Source: Paraburkholderia sp. ZP32-5 (GTDB taxonomy: Bacteria > Pseudomonadota > Gammaproteobacteria > Burkholderiales > Burkholderiaceae). Taken from it: DNA of 64,000 nucleotides. A program made the translations under genes and the position numbers. The DNA lies in the NCBI RefSeq assembly GCF_021390495.1, contig NZ_JAJEJP010000002.1, forward strand, positions 558,001-622,000. The letters run 5' to 3'. The notes under the pieces were generated by a model that saw nothing but the letters and a program-made list of their open reading frames with translations, had not been told where the DNA came from and ran no database searches. Below, one piece after another: positions 32,893-42,398 of the stretch (position 1 is its first letter; each line of letters starts with the position of its first letter).

Positions 32893-33077
32893 ATACAAAT
32901 TTAAATCCCGTTTATATCTCGTGGAAAATCGCGCAATAGACTTATCCGGCCGGTGCGTGGCTTTGTCGTTCCGGTTGGGGCTTGTCCATTCGTCATAGTG
33001 AGCCCGGCAATGCGCGCCGGGCGGGTAAAATCGCAGGTTCGAATGTATTTGCGCCTCGCGAAGTGAGTGAACCTGTG

Positions 33078-33620
33078 ATGAACGACACGCCTTTTTCCAC
33101 GTCCGGCGAAACGAACGCCGATCCGCTGCCGGAAGATTCCTCCGCGCCGCATGACAGCGTGCACGAAGATCGTCTGTGGTGCGATAACGGCTGGACCGCA
33201 CGCATCATCAAGAATGAAGACGACGAAGGCTGGGCCGTCGAAATGATCAAGGACGGAGAGGCGGAGCCCGCGCTCGTCGGACCATGGACGATGGGCCGCA
33301 ACAAGAAAGACCCGAAGCCGCTCGACGTATCGGCGTTCAACACGCTGGTGAAAACGGCGTCGGAAGTGCTGCGCCGCCATGAACAGCAACTGCGCGCGCA
33401 ACTCCATAAGGCGGTGCGGGTGCCGAGCGCGGATGGCAACGATGAACTCGATATCACGCTCGATATCGTGCCCGACGAAGACGAGCCCTATGCGTTGCTG
33501 AGCGCGCTCGATAGCTTGGGCGAGCAGCTTGCGCAGGTGCAGGTCGCGCCGACGTTCAAGCTCAGCAAGGCCAGCGCGACGGCATGGGTAGAAAACGAAT
33601 TTCGCCGGCCCGGCGGCTAA
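33078..33620 (+). CDS. Conserved hypothetical protein
   Basis: Soluble acidic protein of 180 residues. The central segment DNGWTARIIKNEDDEGWAVE, then MIKDGEAEPALVGPWTMGRN, is followed by a predicted long helix FNTLVKTASEVLRRHEQQLR. A negatively charged LDITLDIVPDEDEPYALLSA comes before the C-terminus. No signal peptide or membrane segment. The start is ATG at 33078; upstream codons lie in the intergenic region. It resembles a family confined to Burkholderia relatives. Function unknown. Confidence 0.8.
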   Translation: MNDTPFSTSGETNADPLPEDSSAPHDSVHEDRLWCDNGWTARIIKNEDDEGWAVEMIKDGEAEPALVGPWTMGRNKKDPKPLDVSAFNTLVKTASEVLRRHEQQLRAQLHKAVRVPSADGNDELDITLDIVPDEDEPYALLSALDSLGEQLAQVQVAPTFKLSKASATAWVENEFRRPGG

Positions 33621-33693: not shown

Positions 33694-34128
33694 TCATTCG
33701 CGCTTGCAGAAAATCGCCGTGATTAGCGGCGCGACATGATGGACGATCGCCGTGCTGCCGGCATCCGCAATCGCGGCACGGACTTTCTCTTCGGCACCGA
33801 ACACCACCGCGCCGTACGCGGATTGCGCGAGCGGCTCGCCGTCGCCGACCCGGAATAGCGGGTCGTCTTTCTGGAAGCCGACCACCGCGAATACGCGAAA
33901 ACCGAAGGCGGTCAGATTGGCATCATGCGTCGGCGAAAACGCGTTGATCGAGTTGCGTTCGACATGCGTTGGCTTCGGGTCGATCAACTGCTGATCGAGA
34001 AGGTCGGCAATAAACTGATGGCCGCTTTCATTGCAAACGAGCGGCGCGTCGAGCGTGACGGCGAAACCAGAAACCGGCAGTCCGGCGGCCGCGACGAATA
34101 GTAGTAGCGAGGTAAAAAAGCGATTCAT
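33694..34128 (-). CDS. Exported hypothetical protein
   Basis: Protein of 144 residues with a clear signal peptide (MNRFFTSLLLFVAAAGLPVS, cleavage near GFA). The mature part has a cysteine near each end (LVCNESGHQF and ITAIFCKRE) that could form a disulphide, and VFAVVGFQKDDPLFRVGDGE in the middle. Likely periplasmic. No family recognised. The start is ATG at 34126-34128; the longer upstream frame has low-complexity Arg-rich translation and was rejected. Confidence 0.78.
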   Translation of the reverse strand: MNRFFTSLLLFVAAAGLPVSGFAVTLDAPLVCNESGHQFIADLLDQQLIDPKPTHVERNSINAFSPTHDANLTAFGFRVFAVVGFQKDDPLFRVGDGEPLAQSAYGAVVFGAEEKVRAAIADAGSTAIVHHVAPLITAIFCKRE

Positions 34129-34367
34129 GAGCTTAGACGGCAATCCTGATTCGATGTCGTGGATTCGCAACGGCCGGCGGCGCGGCCTGACGGCCCGCGT
34201 GGCGCGCGTACCGAGGGAATTCCACATGGCAGGCGCGACAGGATTCGCACTTTATCGTGATTCGACGGATCCCGCTTCATGACGGACACACAATTGTCAT
34301 TGGCAATCTTCAAGGAAACGTTCGGGAGGAAAGCAATCTTTCTCGATCCCGTATATATTTCCGGGTT

Positions 34368-35060
34368 ATGACTTCGAAAGCTAAATCTCCAGTTAACGTT
34401 CCGCCGCCCCGCACCTGGGACGCCCGGCTCGCCCGCCGGCTCGTGACACCGCTGGTCAATACCTGGGTCACACCGAACCATCTCACCACATTGCGCCTGC
34501 TGATCGGCGTCGCAGGCGCTTTGTGCCTTGCCCACGGCGAATTCGCGTGGGCCAATGCCGGCGCATTGCTGATCGTGCTGTCGAATTTCGTCGATCACAC
34601 GGACGGCGAACTCGCGCGGATCAGCGGCAAATCGAGCCGTATCGGTCATTTTTACGATCTCGCCTGCGATGCGCTCGTCACCGTGATGCTATTCGTCGGT
34701 ATGGGCATCGGTGTCGGCGGCACGCAGATCGGCGGACTGAAAGTCTCGCCGGGCGTGCTCGGCGCGGTGGCTGGCGTGGCCGTTGCGTTGATCTTCTTTC
34801 TGCGCATGCGTATCGAGGAAATGGTTGGCAAGGCCGGCACGAAGCAGGCGTCGGTCGGCGGCTTCGAAACCGAAGACGTGCTGTATCTGCTACCCATCGT
34901 CACACTGACCAGTGTCGTGATGCCGTTCGTCGTGGTGGCGTCGATCGGCGCGCCGCTATTCGCCGTGTGGGTGGTGATCGACTACTGGCGCGTCGCGCGC
35001 CGTACCGCCAGCCCGGCGGCCAAGGCCTCCGAAAAAAGTCAACTCTGGGCCAGCGAATGA
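34368..35060 (+). CDS. CDP-alcohol phosphatidyltransferase family enzyme
   Basis: Integral membrane enzyme of 230 residues that joins a CDP-activated alcohol to another alcohol with release of CMP. The complete signature D-G-x2-A-R-x8-G-x3-D-x3-D is present: Asp79, Gly80, Ala83, Arg84, Gly93, Asp97, Asp101 (HTDGELARISG...GHFYDLACD). About six hydrophobic segments. The ATG at 34368 has no ribosome site, but a TATATT lies eight bases ahead, so a leaderless or very short-leader message is possible. Its stop overlaps the oxygenase start by 4 bp. First gene of a four-gene operon. The alcohol is not identifiable; it could be an inositol, amino alcohol or phosphonate head group. Confidence 0.9.
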   Translation: MTSKAKSPVNVPPPRTWDARLARRLVTPLVNTWVTPNHLTTLRLLIGVAGALCLAHGEFAWANAGALLIVLSNFVDHTDGELARISGKSSRIGHFYDLACDALVTVMLFVGMGIGVGGTQIGGLKVSPGVLGAVAGVAVALIFFLRMRIEEMVGKAGTKQASVGGFETEDVLYLLPIVTLTSVVMPFVVVASIGAPLFAVWVVIDYWRVARRTASPAAKASEKSQLWASE

Positions 35061-35875
35061 GTACGCAAGCCGAAGACCCGATTACGTCCGCATCCGCGCA
35101 AACAACCGCATCCGCAGCATCTGCCGTGCCCGCGCCGGACGCCGACCGCGCGGTCGCGAGCCGCACGCGCACGTTCGACAATGCGCGTCTGCGCAAGGAT
35201 TTTTCCACGCAGGGCGCGTTTCTCTACCTCGACGATTTTCTCGCGCCGGAAGTTACCGCGCAACTGATCCACAGTGCGCGCTCGATGCTCGACGAGGTGA
35301 ACCGTAACTATCTGCCCGGGCATAAGCAGGGCGGTAGCGTAAGCCGCCATACGATCGATCGCCTCGCGCCGTTTATCGCCGAGCTATATCGGTCGAAGGA
35401 ACTGATCGGCTGGCTCGAGCAGATGAGCGGCGACAAGCTGCAGGTGTCGCCTGCCGACGATCCCCACGCCTACGCGCTCTACTACTACACGCGGCCGGGC
35501 GACCATATCGGCTGGCACTACGACACTTCGTATTACGACGGCCGCCGCTATACGGTGCTGCTCGGTGTTATCGACGAATCGTCGTGCCGGCTCGACTACG
35601 AGCTGCATACGCGCAATCCGGATATGCCCGATCAACCGGGCTCGGTGCAGATTCCGCCGGGCGGCCTGGTGTTTTTCGACGGCGACAAACTGCGCCATCG
35701 CATTACGCCGGCAGGCGCGAACGAGATGCGTGTATCGCTGACATTCGAGTACGTCACCGACCCGAATATGCGGCCGTGGCGCCGCTTTATTTCCAATATG
35801 AAGGACGCGATCGCGTACTTCGGTTTCCGCCAGGTATTCCGTCAGATGACCTCGCGGGGCAAGGGCGCCGCATGA
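35057..35875 (+). CDS. 2-oxoglutarate/Fe(II)-dependent oxygenase
   Basis: Oxygenase of 272 residues. The iron-binding triad is His154, Asp156 (IGWHYDTSYYDGRRYTVLLG) and His214 (FDGDKLRHRIT), and Arg225 (NEMRVSLTF) would hold 2-oxoglutarate, as in prolyl-hydroxylase-like enzymes. The first 40 residues are Ala/Ser-rich and probably disordered. No signal peptide. Translationally coupled on both sides (ATGA overlaps) to a CDP-alcohol phosphatidyltransferase and a flippase-like membrane protein, so its substrate is probably a lipid or head-group precursor; this is inference. Confidence 0.9.
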   Translation: MSTQAEDPITSASAQTTASAASAVPAPDADRAVASRTRTFDNARLRKDFSTQGAFLYLDDFLAPEVTAQLIHSARSMLDEVNRNYLPGHKQGGSVSRHTIDRLAPFIAELYRSKELIGWLEQMSGDKLQVSPADDPHAYALYYYTRPGDHIGWHYDTSYYDGRRYTVLLGVIDESSCRLDYELHTRNPDMPDQPGSVQIPPGGLVFFDGDKLRHRITPAGANEMRVSLTFEYVTDPNMRPWRRFISNMKDAIAYFGFRQVFRQMTSRGKGAA

Positions 35876-36894
35876 GTCGCGCCGCGCTGCTTCTGCTGTC
35901 GATCGGCACGGCGCTGTTTGTCGGCCTGCTCGCGTGGCAGGGGTTCGGCTCGGTCGCTTCTACCTTGCTCGCGGCCGGCTGGGGGCTCGCGGTCGTCGCG
36001 GCGTTTCATATCGTGCCGCTGGTGATCGATGCCGGTGCGATTGCGGTGCTGTTCAGGCGTGATGGCAGCGGCGGTGCGCCGCGCGATGTGTCGTTGCGCG
36101 ACGCGCTGTCCGCGCGCTGGATCGGCGAATCGGTAAATAGCCTGCTGCCGGCCGGCCAGATCGGCGGCCCGGTCGTGATGGTGCGGCAGCTGTCGCAGCG
36201 CGGCATGCTGCTGCGCGATGCGGCCGCGGCAATCACGGTCAGCACGACATGGCAGGCGCTGGCGCAAATCATTTTCGCGCTTAGCGGCCTGCTGCTATTC
36301 GGCGCCTATGCCGCGCACGGCGCGCTGCGCGATCTGCAAACCGCGACGCTGATCGCGACCTGTGTGCTTGGCGCGATGATCGCCGGTTTTTACTTTGCAC
36401 AGCGGCGCGGTCTGTTTGGCCGGCTGCTCGGCGTGGTGTCGAAGGTATTCGGCAAGCGCGACTGGTCGTCGCTGATGACCCGCGCGGAAGCCGTCGATGC
36501 CGCCGTGCAGTCGCTTTACGGCGAACGGCGCCGGGTGGTGGCGAGTTTCGTGTTGAGTTTTGTCGGTTGGGTCGTTGGCACTGTCGAAGTCTGGCTCGCG
36601 CTGCGCTTTCTCGGCCATCCGGTCGGCTGGATCGACGCGCTGCTGCTCGAAAGCATCGGCCAGGCGATTCGCGGCGCGGCGTTTATGATTCCGGGCTCGC
36701 TTGGCGTGCAGGAGGGCGGCTATCTGCTGCTTGCACCGCTGGTGGGTTTGCCGCCCGACGCGGCGCTGGCGTTGTCGCTCGCCAAGCGCGCGCGTGAAAT
36801 CCTGCTGGGCCTGCCGGGCCTGCTGGTTTTGCACTTCAGCGAAAGAAGCTGGCAACGGCGACGCGCCCTACGGCGCATGCCCGTTGCCGATTGA
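35872..36894 (+). CDS. Flippase-like integral membrane protein (LPG synthase TM / HpnL-like family)
   Basis: Membrane protein of 340 residues with about eight transmembrane segments. Family motifs are SARWIGESVNSLLPAGQIGG, GWVVGTVEVWLALRFLG and the C-terminal AAFMIPGSLGVQEGGYLLLA (GxxGxxE). Relatives include the transmembrane domain of MprF, which flips lysyl-phosphatidylglycerol, and HpnL of hopanoid clusters. In this operon it may move a modified lipid across the inner membrane. The start overlaps the oxygenase stop. Confidence 0.88.
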   Translation: MSRAALLLLSIGTALFVGLLAWQGFGSVASTLLAAGWGLAVVAAFHIVPLVIDAGAIAVLFRRDGSGGAPRDVSLRDALSARWIGESVNSLLPAGQIGGPVVMVRQLSQRGMLLRDAAAAITVSTTWQALAQIIFALSGLLLFGAYAAHGALRDLQTATLIATCVLGAMIAGFYFAQRRGLFGRLLGVVSKVFGKRDWSSLMTRAEAVDAAVQSLYGERRRVVASFVLSFVGWVVGTVEVWLALRFLGHPVGWIDALLLESIGQAIRGAAFMIPGSLGVQEGGYLLLAPLVGLPPDAALALSLAKRAREILLGLPGLLVLHFSERSWQRRRALRRMPVAD

Positions 36895-36921
36895 TCTCCG
36901 TATTTTTTCAAAGGACCGCGC

Positions 36922-37686
36922 ATGCGCGCCATTATTCTCGCAGCGGGCCTCGGCCTGCGTCTTCAGCAGCCGCCGCAAGCCCAGTTTCCCAAGTGCCTGT
37001 TGCAGTTCGACGGGATGAGCCTGCTCGAGCGGCATCTGCAGATGCTGGAAACCGCCGGCGTCACCGACGTCGTGCTGGCGCTCGGTTTCCAGCCGGAATC
37101 GGTGCAGGCGGAACTGGCGCGTATCAACTGGCCGCATAAGGTCGAGACCGTAATCAATCCGCGTTTCGATCTCGGCAGCGTGCTGACGGTACATACGGTT
37201 GCTGACGCGCTGACGCGCGGCGGCGATGTGCTGTTGATGGATGCCGATGTGCTCTACGACGAGCGGATTCTGAATGCGCTGGTGACGGGGGAATCGGTTA
37301 ATCGGCTATTGATTGACCGCGATTTCGAAGCGGGCGACGAGCCGGTCAAGCTGTGTCTGAAAAACAGCGTGCCGGTCGAATTGCGCAAGCAGCTCGCGGT
37401 AAATCTCGAGTACGACATGATCGGCGAATCGGTTGGCTTTTTCCGCTTCCGCGAGGAAACAGCGCAACGCTTTACGCAGATCGTTGCCGGCTATATCGAT
37501 AGCGGCCGCGCAAATATGCCGCATGAAGAAGCGGTGCGTGACCTGCTGCTCGAGCGCACTCAGGTATTCGATACCGCCGATGTCACCGGTGCGCCGTGGA
37601 TCGAAATCGACTTTCCGAACGATGTCGCGCGCGCAACCAATGAAATCCTGCCGCAATTGCAGCCGCTCGTGAGCGCATCGCGCTGA
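36922..37686 (+). CDS. Nucleotidyltransferase (NTP-transferase, phosphocholine cytidylyltransferase-like)
   Basis: Soluble enzyme of 254 residues that makes an NDP-activated compound. The N-terminal ILAAGLGLRL motif (residues 5-14) and Pro23-Lys24 (FPKCLL) form the nucleotide site; the metal-binding Asp lies in LLMDADVLYDE near 105-109. C-terminal GAPWIEIDFPNDVARA (IDxxxD) is typical of sugar-phosphate and choline-phosphate nucleotidyltransferases. It begins 27 bases after the flippase gene. It could supply the CDP-alcohol used by the first gene of the operon, which would make the operon self-sufficient for head-group activation and attachment. Confidence 0.88.
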   Translation: MRAIILAAGLGLRLQQPPQAQFPKCLLQFDGMSLLERHLQMLETAGVTDVVLALGFQPESVQAELARINWPHKVETVINPRFDLGSVLTVHTVADALTRGGDVLLMDADVLYDERILNALVTGESVNRLLIDRDFEAGDEPVKLCLKNSVPVELRKQLAVNLEYDMIGESVGFFRFREETAQRFTQIVAGYIDSGRANMPHEEAVRDLLLERTQVFDTADVTGAPWIEIDFPNDVARATNEILPQLQPLVSASR

Positions 37687-37934: not shown

Positions 37935-39338
37935 ATGCCTCTCGCTTTGGGCACTTTTATCGTTCCGCTGATCGTCGCATGCGCGATGTTCATGGAAAAC
38001 GTGGACGGCACAGTTATCGTCACGTCGCTGCCGACTCTGGCACGCGATCTCGGGCAGGATCCCATTACCCTCAAGCTTGCCGTCACATCGTATGTGATTG
38101 GCCTCGGCGTATTTATCCCGATTTGCGGCTGGGTCGCCGACCGTTTCGGTTCGCGCACGGTATTTCGCACGGCCATCGGTATTTTTATGGCGGGATCGCT
38201 GATGTGCGCGGCCTCCACTTCGCTCGATACCTTTGTGGTCGCCCGTTTTGTACAGGGTGTCGGCGGCGCGCTGATGGTACCGGTGGGCCGCATTATTATT
38301 TTCCGTTCGGTGCCGAAATCGGAATTTATCCGCGCGATGAATTATCTTTCGGTACCGGCTTTGCTCGGTCCGGTCATCGGGCCGCTGCTCGGCGGTTTTA
38401 TCACGACCTATCTGCATTGGCGTCTGATTTTTGTCATCAATATTCCGATTGGTCTGCTCGGCATCTGGCTGACGAATAAACATATTGCCAATACCCGTGA
38501 GCTGTATCCGGGCCGGCTCGACTGGATCGGCTTTGTGCTGTCGGCGAGCGGCGCGTCGCTATTTATGCTTGGGCTTTCGCTGGTCGGCGGTGAGTTGGTA
38601 TCGACGCATAACTCGGTCGGTATGTGTGTGATCGGCATCGTGCTGCTGGCGATCTATGTGCTGTATGCGAGCCGTGTCGCATTGCCGGTGCTCGATCTGC
38701 GTCTGCTGCGTATTCCCAGTTTTCATGCGAGCGTGATTGGTGGCTCGATGTTTCGTATCGGCCTTGGAGCCGTGCCGTTTCTATTGCCGCTTGCGTTGCA
38801 GGAAGGGCTCGGCATGACCGCATTTAGAGCGGGTGCGATTACCTGCGCGTCCGCATTCGGCTCGATCTTTATGAAGACGGTGGCCTCGCGCATTCTCCGA
38901 CACTTCGGGTTTCGTACCGTGCTGATGGTCAATGCCGCTTGCGCGGGGCTTGCGATTGCGGTGTATGGATTATTTTTCCCGGGCACGCCGCATTGGTTAA
39001 TCTGGTGCGTCGTGCTGGTGGGTGGCTTCTTTCCGTCGTTGCAATTTACGTCGCTCAATACGCTTGCGTATGCGGATATTCCGAGCAGCGATGTGGGTCG
39101 CGCAACGAGCGTAGCGAGCGTGATTCAGCAGATGTCGCTGGGCCTTGGTGTAACGATCGCCGGTATCGTGCTGCAGATTTCACATGCGGTGCAGGGGCAT
39201 CCGAAGATCGTGTTTTCCGATTTCTGGCCGGCGTTCCTGGTGGTGGGGCTGTTCTCCTGCCTGTCGATACCGATTACCCGGCGCATGCCGCCGGATGCGG
39301 GCGATGAGATTGCGCGCGGCAATCACGGGCGTGCGTAG
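37935..39338 (+). CDS. MFS transporter, DHA2 family (HsrA/EmrB-like)
   Basis: Inner-membrane exporter of 467 residues with about 13-14 membrane segments. Motif D1 is ENVDGTVIVTSLPTLARDLG, motif A GWVADRFGSR, motif B ARFVQGVGGALMVPVGRIII and motif C GPVIGPLLGGFITTYLHWR. The start is ATG at 37935, with no strong ribosome site. A/T-ending codons are somewhat more frequent here than in neighbouring genes. Substrate unknown; the link to the preceding lipid operon is only by position, 248 bases away. Confidence 0.9.
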   Translation: MPLALGTFIVPLIVACAMFMENVDGTVIVTSLPTLARDLGQDPITLKLAVTSYVIGLGVFIPICGWVADRFGSRTVFRTAIGIFMAGSLMCAASTSLDTFVVARFVQGVGGALMVPVGRIIIFRSVPKSEFIRAMNYLSVPALLGPVIGPLLGGFITTYLHWRLIFVINIPIGLLGIWLTNKHIANTRELYPGRLDWIGFVLSASGASLFMLGLSLVGGELVSTHNSVGMCVIGIVLLAIYVLYASRVALPVLDLRLLRIPSFHASVIGGSMFRIGLGAVPFLLPLALQEGLGMTAFRAGAITCASAFGSIFMKTVASRILRHFGFRTVLMVNAACAGLAIAVYGLFFPGTPHWLIWCVVLVGGFFPSLQFTSLNTLAYADIPSSDVGRATSVASVIQQMSLGLGVTIAGIVLQISHAVQGHPKIVFSDFWPAFLVVGLFSCLSIPITRRMPPDAGDEIARGNHGRA

Positions 39339-39565: not shown

Positions 39566-40615
39566 TCAACCCGCCTGCTCGACCGGCGTCAATATCAATT
39601 CCAGCCGCTGCGCGCCGCGCAGCACGGTTACGCCGACTGGCTTATCGATACGCGATGCGTCGAGCGCGCGTTGCAAGCTATCCACATCCTGTACCGGCTG
39701 CATATCGATTGCGACGATCGTATCGTCGGTACGCAAGCCGCCCAGCGCGGCCGGACTGCCTTTGACGATTTCCATGACATGCACGCCGCTTTGCGCGCTT
39801 AGACCGAAATAGCGCTGCACCCGGCGCGATAACGGTGTCGTGGTGCCGGCCACGCCGATATACGCTCGCCGCACGCGGCCATGCGCAAAGATCTGCATGA
39901 TCACCCATTTGGCGGTATCGATCGCGGTCGCAAAGCAGATCGCCTGCGCGCCGGGGATGATCGCGGTATTGACGCCGATTACCTGGCCCGCCGAATTGAT
40001 CAGCGGGCCGCCCGAGTTGCCTGGATTAAGCGCGGCATCGGTCTGGATTACGTCGTAGATCATACGGCCGGAGTTCGAGCGCAACGAACGGCCGAGCGCC
40101 GATATCACGCCGGTGGTGACGGTCTGCTGCAGACCGAGCGGATTGCCGACCGCGATCGCGATCTGTCCGACACGCAGCTTCGACGATTCGCCAAGCTCGA
40201 CATGTGGCAGCGGCTCCGGCGAGCCGATACGCAGCACCGCGAGATCGCTGCCGGGGTCGTCGCCGACCAGATCGGCATCGAATTTCGCGCCGTCGGCGAG
40301 CGTAACCTGAATATGCGTCGCGCCATGCACGACATGGCTATTGGTCAGCAGATAGCCATCGGGCGTAAAGATAAAACCCGAACCGGTGCCGCCGCACGCG
40401 CCGCGGCTATGCCCTGGCGGCTCGCCGGACATGCGGCGTTCGACGGCAATAAACGCCACTGCTTGTTGGACCCGCTCCAGTGCGCCGATTACGGTGCGGG
40501 AGTAGGCGTCGAGCAGGGCATCGTCGTGGCGAGTCAGAAGTTCGGTGGATTGCGGCCCGGGGGCGTCGGATGCGGCGCCCGACAGGTCATCGATGAAGCG
40601 TGGGCGGCTTCCCAT
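39566..40615 (-). CDS. HtrA-like serine protease (S1C) with PDZ domain, no signal peptide
   Basis: Trypsin-fold protease of 349 residues. The triad is His94 (TNSHVVHGA), Asp124 (PGSDLAVLRI) and Ser201 (ALNPGNSGGPL). One PDZ domain follows from about residue 255 (RRAYIGVAGTTTPLSRRVQR onward, GSPAALGGLRTDDTIVAIDM). Unlike DegP/DegQ/DegS, no signal peptide or N-terminal membrane anchor is visible: the protein begins MGSRPRFIDDLSGAASDAPG. It is therefore probably cytoplasmic, or the true start differs. The upstream region offers no hydrophobic in-frame extension. One PDZ domain makes it DegS/HhoB-like. Confidence 0.9.
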   Translation of the reverse strand: MGSRPRFIDDLSGAASDAPGPQSTELLTRHDDALLDAYSRTVIGALERVQQAVAFIAVERRMSGEPPGHSRGACGGTGSGFIFTPDGYLLTNSHVVHGATHIQVTLADGAKFDADLVGDDPGSDLAVLRIGSPEPLPHVELGESSKLRVGQIAIAVGNPLGLQQTVTTGVISALGRSLRSNSGRMIYDVIQTDAALNPGNSGGPLINSAGQVIGVNTAIIPGAQAICFATAIDTAKWVIMQIFAHGRVRRAYIGVAGTTTPLSRRVQRYFGLSAQSGVHVMEIVKGSPAALGGLRTDDTIVAIDMQPVQDVDSLQRALDASRIDKPVGVTVLRGAQRLELILTPVEQAG

Positions 40616-41252: not shown

Positions 41253-41471
41253 CGTCGGATATTCGCGCAAAACTCGCTATCATAAATAGCGCCGCATGTT
41301 GCGCATGCCGGAATCGAGCCGATAGAGTCGTGGCGAGCCCGTTATCGGAGCTTCGCCAGTCCGTCGGCCTGCGTGGTAACACGGCTGACACCTCGCGCTT
41401 CGATAATCGAACGCGTCCGCGTCGCGCTTGCCGCCGCGCGCCATCCCATTCCTGTTGCGAGGAGAGCCGCA

Positions 41472-42398
41472 ATGAAAGAGCCGGACCCGAGATCTGAAAC
41501 CGAATTGATGGCGGAGCGCCAGCGTCGTTTCGAGGAAGACCTTATCGACGCCTATGACGAAGAACTCGAAATGGAAGTCGACGACCGTATCATCGACGGT
41601 GCGGCCGGCTTGACGAGCGAACATCGCGAAGCGCGCAAGCAGTATTTCCGCGAGCTATTCCGGCTGCAAGGCGAACTGGTCAAGCTACAGGACTGGATCG
41701 TAAAGACCGGCCATCGGCTCGTGGTGATCTTCGAAGGGCGCGACGCAGCCGGCAAGGGCGGCGCGATCAAACGCATTACGCAGCGGCTCAATCCGCGGGT
41801 ATGCCGCGTGGCGGCGCTGCCGGCGCCGAATAATCGCGAGCGCACGCAATGGTATTTCCAGCGCTATGTTTCGCATCTGCCCGCCGGCGGCGAAATGGTG
41901 CTGTTCGACCGTAGCTGGTATAACCGCGCGGGCGTCGAACGCGTAATGAATTTCTGCACGGACGACGAATACGAAGAGTTTTTCCGCTCGGTGCCCGAAT
42001 TCGAAAAGATGCTGGTGCGCAGCGGCGTGCAGATCATCAAGTACTGGTTTTCGATTACCGACGAAGAGCAGGAAATCCGCTTCCAGAATCGTATCCACGA
42101 TCCGCTGAAGCAATGGAAGCTGAGTCCGATGGACCTGGAAAGCCGCCGCCGCTGGGAAGCGTATACGCTGGCGAAGGAAGTGATGCTGCAGCGCTCGCAT
42201 ATTCCCGAGGCACCGTGGTGGGTCGTGCAGGCCGTCGACAAGAAGCGCGCGCGCCTGAACTGTATCCAGCATCTGCTGAGCCAGGTGCCGTATCACGAGA
42301 TCGAGCATCAGCAGATCGAATTGCCGTCGCGCGTCCATCATGAAGACTATAGCCGCCAGCCGGTGCCGCAATCGATGATCGTGCCCGAGGTGTATTGA
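41472..42398 (+). CDS. ppk2: Polyphosphate kinase 2
   Basis: Transfers phosphate between polyphosphate and nucleotides. It has 308 residues, the size of single-domain class I PPK2. Walker A is GRDAAGKGG (89-97), the lid region is ALPAPNNRERTQWYFQRYVS, and Walker B is MVLFDRSWYNRAGVERVMNF with Asp146-Arg147. The start is ATG at 41472 with GGAGAG. It is convergent with a Pit phosphate transporter across a bidirectional terminator, and a CHAD protein, a family that binds polyphosphate granules, lies 2.9 kb downstream. Direction of catalysis (synthesis of NTP or of polyphosphate) cannot be read from sequence. Confidence 0.95.
   Translation: MKEPDPRSETELMAERQRRFEEDLIDAYDEELEMEVDDRIIDGAAGLTSEHREARKQYFRELFRLQGELVKLQDWIVKTGHRLVVIFEGRDAAGKGGAIKRITQRLNPRVCRVAALPAPNNRERTQWYFQRYVSHLPAGGEMVLFDRSWYNRAGVERVMNFCTDDEYEEFFRSVPEFEKMLVRSGVQIIKYWFSITDEEQEIRFQNRIHDPLKQWKLSPMDLESRRRWEAYTLAKEVMLQRSHIPEAPWWVVQAVDKKRARLNCIQHLLSQVPYHEIEHQQIELPSRVHHEDYSRQPVPQSMIVPEVY

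What the first reader, a model, noticed from the sequence alone, without database searches (positions are those of the whole stretch)
34368..37686. Four-gene operon that reads as an undescribed lipid head-group pathway
A CDP-alcohol phosphatidyltransferase, a 2-oxoglutarate/Fe(II) oxygenase, a flippase-like membrane protein and a nucleotidyltransferase follow each other with two ATGA overlaps and one 27-base gap. All key residues are intact. Known for the families: nucleotidyltransferases make CDP-alcohols, CDP-alcohol transferases attach them to a lipid, and LPG-synthase-like TM proteins flip lipids. The inference is that the operon makes, hydroxylates and moves a phospholipid or phosphonolipid with an unusual head group. 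I know of no described pathway with this exact set.
Basis: partly seen in the sequence, partly recalled or inferred. Interest (0 to 1): 0.75.

Follow-up and report, generated by a model that had tools for sequence, protein, structure and literature searches.

The report
Split-off half of a phosphonolipid pathway
Four neighbouring genes in a bacterium are one half of a seven-gene set that related bacteria keep together, and the set is predicted to build membrane lipids whose head group carries a carbon-phosphorus bond and likely an added hydroxyl, which would make them exact-mass twins of a very common lipid and easy to miss.

Summary
In detail: 34368-37686 encodes a CDP-alcohol phosphatidyltransferase, a 2-oxoglutarate/Fe(II) oxygenase, an HpnL-type flippase-like protein and a nucleotidyltransferase. 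The genes that would make the head group lie outside the window: pepM-ppd-AEP aminotransferase, 1.42 Mb away on the same contig. In one genome each of three sister genera the halves form one seven-gene run. In 144 genomes of the genus the oxygenase and pepM occur together in 128 (one damaged in both), oxygenase only in 4, pepM only in 0, neither intact in 12. PepM lies in the fetched stretch of 64 of 80 nucleotidyltransferase relatives. The nucleotidyltransferase model fits the AEP cytidylyltransferase PntC best. The oxygenase has the HalD/BesD fold but keeps the Fe-binding Asp (241 of 241 aligned), so it should hydroxylate, not halogenate. Best reading: CMP-AEP is made, AEP is put on a diacylglycerol-like lipid, hydroxylated to 1-hydroxy-2-aminoethylphosphonate (HAEP), and the lipid flipped. 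Nothing was assayed. 'Undescribed' is only partly right: a 2018 paper drew this gene set in Nostoc, with a Burkholderia homologue, as a phosphonate-lipid cluster. Added here: the split, the co-loss, and that the HAEP lipid is isomeric with phosphatidylethanolamine.

The parts
34368..35060 (+). CDP-alcohol phosphatidyltransferase (230 aa): predicted transfer of the aminophosphonate from its CMP form to a lipid alcohol
   Evidence: PF01066 48.6 bits, cut-off 22; full CDP-alcohol motif at residues 76-101; about 50% identical to the transferase of the single-locus cluster in G060
34593..34670 (+). CDP-alcohol transferase signature D..DG..AR.{8}G...D...D (residues 76-101)
   Evidence: pattern match
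35057..35875 (+). 2-oxoglutarate/Fe(II) oxygenase (272 aa), HalD/BesD-like fold with HxD: predicted C1 hydroxylase of the aminoethylphosphonate head group
   Evidence: PF23169; model pLDDT 88.4, pTM 0.82, best matches HalB, HalD and the BesD-like hydroxylase 7jsd; D156, H214, R225 in 241 of 241 aligned sequences (window plus the 240 listed best hits of two searches), H154 in 240
35057..35060 (+). ATGA overlap, transferase stop / oxygenase start
   Evidence: sequence
35516..35524 (+). codons of H154-Y155-D156, predicted iron ligands H154 and D156 of the oxygenase
35696..35698 (+). codon of H214, predicted third iron ligand (R225, predicted 2-oxoglutarate contact, is 35729-35731)
35872..36894 (+). 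HpnL-type flippase-like membrane protein (340 aa): predicted to move the finished lipid
   Evidence: TIGR03476 355.5 bits, cut-off 195.65; PF03706 99 bits
35872..35875 (+). ATGA overlap, oxygenase stop / HpnL start
   Evidence: sequence
36895..36921 (+). 27-base gap
   Evidence: sequence
36922..37686 (+). Stand-alone nucleotidyltransferase (254 aa), PntC-like: predicted CTP:aminoethylphosphonate cytidylyltransferase

Best explanation
The operon is one half of a split seven-gene aminophosphonate set, and its genes are predicted to attach 2-aminoethylphosphonate (AEP), which the distant pepM-ppd-aminotransferase genes of the same genome would make, to a membrane lipid and likely to hydroxylate it to a 1-hydroxy-2-aminoethylphosphonate (HAEP) head group. 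Shown by sequence: the four genes and their order, the separate pepM(-nucleotidyltransferase fusion)-ppd-aminotransferase run, the contiguous seven-gene version in sister genera, and the joint presence and absence. Inferred: PepM turns phosphoenolpyruvate into phosphonopyruvate, Ppd decarboxylates it, the aminotransferase gives AEP; the PntC-like enzyme (and perhaps the domain fused to PepM) makes CMP-AEP; the CDP-alcohol transferase moves AEP onto a diacylglycerol-like acceptor; the oxygenase puts a hydroxyl on C1, on the lipid, the CMP form or free AEP (order unknown); the HpnL-type protein flips the lipid. HAEP and phosphoethanolamine are both C2H8NO4P, so the product would be an exact-mass isomer of phosphatidylethanolamine (arithmetic from formulas, no call).
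For: (1) G060, of another family of the order, holds relatives of the transferase, oxygenase (broken into two pieces there) and nucleotidyltransferase in one cluster with PepM, Ppd and the AEP aminotransferase, these three over NCBIfam cut-off. (2) One genome each of three sister genera carries CDPOH-2OG-HpnL-NTP-PepM-Ppd-AEPT as one run (L079-L081); so do six named Cupriavidus loci and one Ralstonia locus. (3) The own genome has PepM (401.7 bits, cut-off 319.55; EDKQFPKTNS motif), Ppd (461.8, cut-off 312.5) and PhnW-AepZ (412.7, cut-off 360.8) together. (4) In 144 genus genomes: both 128 (G801 among them damaged in both), oxygenase only 4, PepM only 0, neither intact 12 (Fisher 1.8e-14, not corrected for kinship); on an rpoB tree of 29 chosen genomes each trait changes 8 times by parsimony. 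(5) Of 80 nucleotidyltransferase relatives in named genomes, PepM is in the fetched stretch of 64, Ppd 62, AEPT 56, CDP-alcohol transferase 39, oxygenase 20, HpnL 18. (6) The nucleotidyltransferase model fits PntC best. [quoted passage not shown]
Against: No enzyme or lipid was assayed. Four genomes keep the operon without PepM (G008, G706, G744, G750; all four genes present, not used here, but): recent loss, or use of imported AEP or of another head group. 16 of the 80 relatives show no PepM in the fetched stretch and 60 show no oxygenase at the threshold used (ten stretches are under 7 kb), so the oxygenase is optional. The PntC amine contact Glu196 does not align with an acidic residue in the sequence alignment, and Glu104 aligns with Asp, the residue LicC has there. 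Two nucleotidyltransferases, one stand-alone and one fused to PepM, leave it open which makes CMP-AEP. The acceptor lipid and the site of hydroxylation are not shown by any search. In L083 an HpnL-like gene sits near an inositol-3-phosphate-synthase-like gene, so HpnL does not name the head group.
Confidence: 0.68

Rival explanations
1. The product is a plain AEP lipid, and the oxygenase hydroxylates something else, such as an acyl chain or another carbon of the head group.
For: Many relatives of the nucleotidyltransferase stand beside PepM without a detected oxygenase (60 of all 80 loci show none), so AEP tailoring seems to work without it; BesD-like enzymes act on carbons well away from the amine (recalled).
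Against: In the Calothrix/Nostoc and Burkholderiaceae loci that have it, the oxygenase gene lies between the transferase and the nucleotidyltransferase; the fold family includes enzymes solved with small free amino acids such as lysine and ornithine (structure titles), which AEP resembles more than an acyl chain does; HAEP is a reported lipid head group.
Confidence: 0.17
2. The head group is not a phosphonate but another CDP-alcohol (inositol, choline, ethanolamine, serine-like); the pepM link is incidental.
For: The transferase's best NCBIfam models are inositol-phosphate lipid synthases, below cut-off (60.4 of 180 bits); a related arrangement in G488 and G511 carries an inositol-3-phosphate-synthase-like gene (TIGR03450 440.9 and 458.4 bits, below its cut-off of 638; PF01658 over cut-off for the G511 one); four genomes keep the operon without pepM.
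Against: One-cluster and contiguous versions with pepM-ppd-aminotransferase; 64 of 80 relatives with PepM in the stretch; joint loss; PntC is the best structural match, 4 Z units above LicC and 5 above IPCT-DIPPS.
Confidence: 0.08
3. The CMP-aminophosphonate decorates a surface glycan or lipid A rather than a membrane phospholipid.
For: The example of a surface AEP modification that PMC6697681 gives is a capsular polysaccharide, and its characterised PntC genes lie near LicD-like or glycosyltransferase genes (passages).
Against: The operon has a CDP-alcohol transferase and a flippase-like protein but no LicD-like or glycosyltransferase gene; the transferase belongs to the family named for phosphatidyl transfer.
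Confidence: 0.07

Closest known systems
Predicted phosphonate-lipid cluster of lichen Nostoc, with a Burkholderia homologue (PMC5987646, Fig. 7 legend)
   Same: Gene set: CDP-alcohol transferase, OG-Fe(II) oxidase, NTP transferase, pepM, ppd, AEPT, hpnL; the paper's abbreviation list includes HAEP, DAG and AAG
   Different: In the window genome two loci 1.42 Mb apart. The legend speaks of clusters and of a broken line for separate loci; which genome that concerns I could not see (figure and supplement not seen). Untested in both cases
Pnt (phosphonyl tailoring) pathway with PntC (PMC6697681; PDB 6pd1/6pd2)
   Same: PepM-Ppd-AEPT plus a MobA-like cytidylyltransferase; best structural match of the window enzyme
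   Different: 25% identity; Tde-PntC is fused to AEPT, the window enzyme stands alone; the PepM here has its own fused nucleotidyltransferase domain
HAEP sphingophosphonolipid of Bdellovibrio (Bacteriovorax) stolpii (Watanabe 2001, cited in PMC8154272 and PMC4642753)
   Same: Same predicted head group
   Different: Backbone there is a sphingolipid; its genes were not examined here; the original paper was not read (passages of the citing papers)
BesD/HalD/HalB amino-acid halogenases and the BesD-like hydroxylase 7jsd
   Different: The window enzyme keeps the Fe-binding Asp, as hydroxylases do (recalled); only 15-19% identical to them
IPCT-DIPPS and bacterial inositol-lipid loci
   Same: Nucleotidyltransferase plus CDP-alcohol transferase, CDP-head-group logic; HpnL-like neighbour in L083
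   Different: An inositol-phosphate-synthase-like gene in place of pepM

Membership tests
AEP phosphonyl-tailoring (Pnt-type) pathway | PEP mutase with EDKxxxxxNS motif in the genome | tested here: met
   TIGR02320 401.7 bits, cut-off 319.55; EDKQFPKTNS
AEP phosphonyl-tailoring (Pnt-type) pathway | Phosphonopyruvate decarboxylase and AEP aminotransferase beside pepM | tested here: met
   TIGR03297 461.8 bits and TIGR03301 412.7 bits, both over cut-off
AEP phosphonyl-tailoring (Pnt-type) pathway | Nucleotidyltransferase genes linked to pepM | tested here: met
   Contiguous in L079-L081; 64 of 80 relatives; in the window genome the stand-alone gene lies 1.42 Mb away, but the PepM has a fused nucleotidyltransferase domain
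PntC (CTP:AEP cytidylyltransferase) | Closer to PntC than to LicC or inositol enzymes in structure | tested here: met
PntC (CTP:AEP cytidylyltransferase) | Glu104 and Glu196 near the amine | tested here: inconclusive
   Glu104 aligns with Asp107; Glu196 with no acidic residue, but Glu202 nearby is invariant in 24 of 24
PntC (CTP:AEP cytidylyltransferase) | Preference for AEP over phosphocholine in vitro | not testable with these tools
   needs the enzyme
HalD/BesD-type halogenase (name given by databases) | Gly or Ala in place of the Fe-binding Asp (recalled definition) | tested here: not met
   Asp156 in 241 of 241 aligned sequences
HalD/BesD fold family | Profile and fold match | tested here: met
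CDP-alcohol phosphatidyltransferase family | D..DG..AR.{8}G...D...D | tested here: met
Phosphatidylinositol-phosphate / archaetidylinositol-phosphate synthase | NCBIfam cut-off | tested here: not met
   38.1 of 170 and 60.4 of 180 bits
HpnL | TIGR03476 cut-off | tested here: met
   355.5 bits, cut-off 195.65
HpnL | Hopanoid genes near | not tested
   own genome was not searched for hopanoid genes
Published Nostoc/Burkholderia phosphonate-lipid cluster | Same seven kinds of genes | tested here: met
   legend; own genes (in two loci)
PhnY* (AEP dioxygenase of catabolism, gives R-HAEP) | Sequence relationship to the window oxygenase | not tested
   no PhnY* sequence was compared

The most novel reading that the evidence does not exclude
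Nearly the whole window genus (128 of 144 genomes examined) hides a phosphonate twin of phosphatidylethanolamine in its membranes: a diacyl HAEP lipid of identical formula and, by arithmetic, identical 141-Da head-group loss, made by a split pathway whose hydroxylase is a HalD-fold enzyme re-purposed from amino-acid chemistry to a lipid head group. Routine lipidomics would count it as phosphatidylethanolamine.
Probability: 0.4. Interest if true: 0.78.

Novelty: new member of a known kind. Interest (0 to 1): 0.55.

Why it matters
How bacteria make phosphonolipids is open: the 2019 PntC paper says almost nothing is known about the biosynthesis or roles of phosphonylated glycans and lipids (PMC6697681, introduction). 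This gives a complete candidate gene list, with natural experiments (lineages that lost both halves) and a contiguous seven-gene version in Cupriavidus that can be moved as one piece. If the head group is HAEP, the lipid is isomeric with phosphatidylethanolamine and would be missed by mass alone. It would also be a source of HAEP, whose natural abundance is little known although clusters with an enzyme that degrades it recur in many bacteria (PMC8154272, passages). Finally it would correct a database name: many relatives are filed as HalD/BesD family halogenases yet carry the hydroxylase ligand set.

Tried and rejected
Rejected: (a) halogenase, because the Fe-binding Asp is present in 241 of 241 aligned sequences (the window and the 240 best hits listed, out of 3603 and 1736 hits). 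(b) Inositol lipid as the main reading: family cut-offs not met, PntC the better structural match, pepM linkage; kept as a rival. (c) The MFS gene 37935-39338 as a fifth gene: it stays next to the scar in G009 and G019, where the operon is broken, so it is a neighbour. (d) Hopanoid pathway: suggested only by the name HpnL; not pursued and not tested.

Led nowhere or limited: the phylum search with the CDP-alcohol transferase returned mainly weak general family members (193 of 398 genomes). The first paper search already listed PMC5987646, but I saw what it holds only. Yu 2013 is not held. Searches behind the statement on prior print; most subscription journals are missing from that library. 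I noticed no PhnY* entry among the fold matches shown; this does not exclude kinship.

Caveats on counts: the oxygenase stood in for the whole operon in the 144-genome count; all four genes were looked at together in 29 genomes, in the four without PepM (G008 as L016 and L115; the other three) and in a few further regions. The PepM query was a 274-residue piece that covers most of the mutase domain. G801, counted as 'both', has HpnL in pieces, no nucleotidyltransferase match in the fetched 7 kb, and a stop in the oxygenase match and in the PepM match. The rpoB tree holds 15 of the 16 PepM-negative and 14 of the 128 positive genomes, picked by me; G033 gave no rpoB match and was dropped. In one search matches under 45 bits were dropped and ten stretches are under 7 kb.
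Full report
WHAT IS THERE. Each has a Pfam match over the curated cut-off, and the third gene is an HpnL by NCBIfam. The transferase motif is complete. The genome is 9.09 Mb in 4 contigs and the window lies on C2.

CONSERVATION. Of 59 related genomes, 31 have an oxygenase match, all in the same genus (31 of its 35 in that set); 29 of the 31 show all four genes together in order. Of 300 genomes across the order, 9 match: the window genome and one more of the genus, one each of three sister genera, G060 of another family, and three weaker ones (G200, G095, G196). Of the seven same-family genomes of other genera that the call lists, three match and four do not; a further one, of the same genus as G192, has no match to the CDP-alcohol transferase (G638).

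THE MISSING HALF. In G060 relatives of the transferase (51%), nucleotidyltransferase (47%) and oxygenase (48% in its longer piece; the gene is broken in two there) stand with PEP mutase, phosphonopyruvate decarboxylase and AEP aminotransferase, these three over NCBIfam cut-off. The window genome carries its own PepM (with a fused nucleotidyltransferase domain), Ppd and AEPT run on C2, 1.42 Mb away. So the window operon is half of a set that other bacteria keep in one piece.

CO-OCCURRENCE. In 144 genomes of the genus I scored the oxygenase and a 274-residue PepM piece (matches taken as true PepM are at 4.8e-124 or better, the next best at 6.1e-47). Both: 128. Oxygenase only: 4. PepM only: 0. 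Neither intact: 12, of which 10 have no oxygenase match and 2 have fragments. Fisher 1.8e-14, not corrected for kinship. The profile search agrees: 28 genomes over the PepM cut-off, all with the operon. On an rpoB tree of 29 chosen genomes both traits change 8 times. Of the four 'operon only' genomes, G744 and G706 are joined with full support to 'neither' or broken lineages and G750 is drawn next to such a pair without 0.9 support, which fits loss of pepM first and decay of the operon after it; G008 pairs with a genome that has both. This is a pattern on a small tree, not a test. G019 keeps scraps of three of the genes between unchanged neighbours; G009 shows no HpnL and partial copies of the rest; G801 shows damage in both halves. 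Where both lie on one contig (49 genomes) they are 19 kb to 2.4 Mb apart; in 79 they are on different contigs, many of them drafts, so a contiguous arrangement is not excluded there.

BEYOND THE FAMILY. PepM is in 64 of the 80 stretches, Ppd 62, AEPT 56, CDP-alcohol transferase 39, oxygenase 20, HpnL 18. Seven Calothrix and Nostoc loci have the order CDPOH-2OG-NTP-PepM-Ppd-AEPT (in one, L132, only the end of the oxygenase matches), as in Burkholderiaceae apart from HpnL. Paraburkholderia acidicola (L177) has the four genes without PepM in the 20 kb stretch, as in the window.

MECHANISM. PEP to phosphonopyruvate to phosphonoacetaldehyde to AEP (established for these families); CTP + AEP to CMP-AEP (established for PntC, PMC6697681); transfer to a diacylglycerol-like acceptor, C1 hydroxylation and flipping are inferred. 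HAEP is chosen because it is a reported lipid head group of Bdellovibrio stolpii and has been postulated on genomic grounds in other bacteria (PMC8154272 passages), and because solved members of the oxygenase fold bind small amino acids. By formula the HAEP lipid equals phosphatidylethanolamine, and its head-group neutral loss equals 141 as well; this is arithmetic, not a call.

PRIOR PRINT. PMC5987646 (passages seen) names the same genes in a Nostoc cluster with a Burkholderia homologue and calls it phosphonate lipid synthesis, after Yu 2013 (not held). PMC6697681 (outline and abstract, passages, first part of the text, section 8) gives no hit for Burkholderia, CDP-alcohol or oxygenase in its main text. 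PMC12871164 (passages) is about a different Burkholderia phosphonate cluster. The gene set is therefore in print as a prediction; in the listings of the ten searches named under Tried and rejected I saw no experimental work on it and no mention of the split or the co-loss in Paraburkholderia.

VERDICT. Observation confirmed; interpretation right in kind, sharpened to an aminophosphonolipid; not undescribed but, as far as these searches show, uncharacterised.

Noticed in passing
L107:8977-10947 (G000:C2): PepM carries a C-terminal nucleotidyltransferase domain with an altered signature (LAASRGKGLE), while the window operon has a second, canonical one; the genome thus has two candidate CMP-AEP makers.
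   Followed up: partly
L083, L084 (G488, G511): Related arrangement with an inositol-3-phosphate-synthase-like gene, a nucleotidyltransferase and a CDP-alcohol transferase, with an HpnL-like gene beside them in L083: looks like an inositol version of the same logic.
   Followed up: partly
L077 (G654): HpnL, CDP-alcohol transferase and the hopanoid transporter HpnN side by side, with an AEP transaminase divergent.
   Followed up: no
The search for homologous proteins list: Many relatives of the oxygenase are named 'HalD/BesD family halogenase' although they keep the hydroxylase ligand Asp; likely a misnaming. One record (P0080) is filed under a fungus (Auriculariales), probably a bacterial symbiont or contaminant.
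   Followed up: partly
L158: A MAG titled Klebsiella pneumoniae holds this nucleotidyltransferase beside Ppd; the label looks doubtful.
   Followed up: no
window 37935-39338: DHA2-type MFS transporter that stays next to the operon site in G009 and G019, where the operon is broken.
   Followed up: yes
window 41379-42398: Polyphosphate kinase 2 (PF03976, 363.1 bits).
   Followed up: no
window 39566-40615: HtrA-like trypsin-PDZ protease on the minus strand.
   Followed up: no
window 33694-34227 and 33054-33620: Two upstream ORFs with no Pfam or NCBIfam match at E 0.001; relatives of one or both lie upstream of the operon in most genus loci.
   Followed up: no
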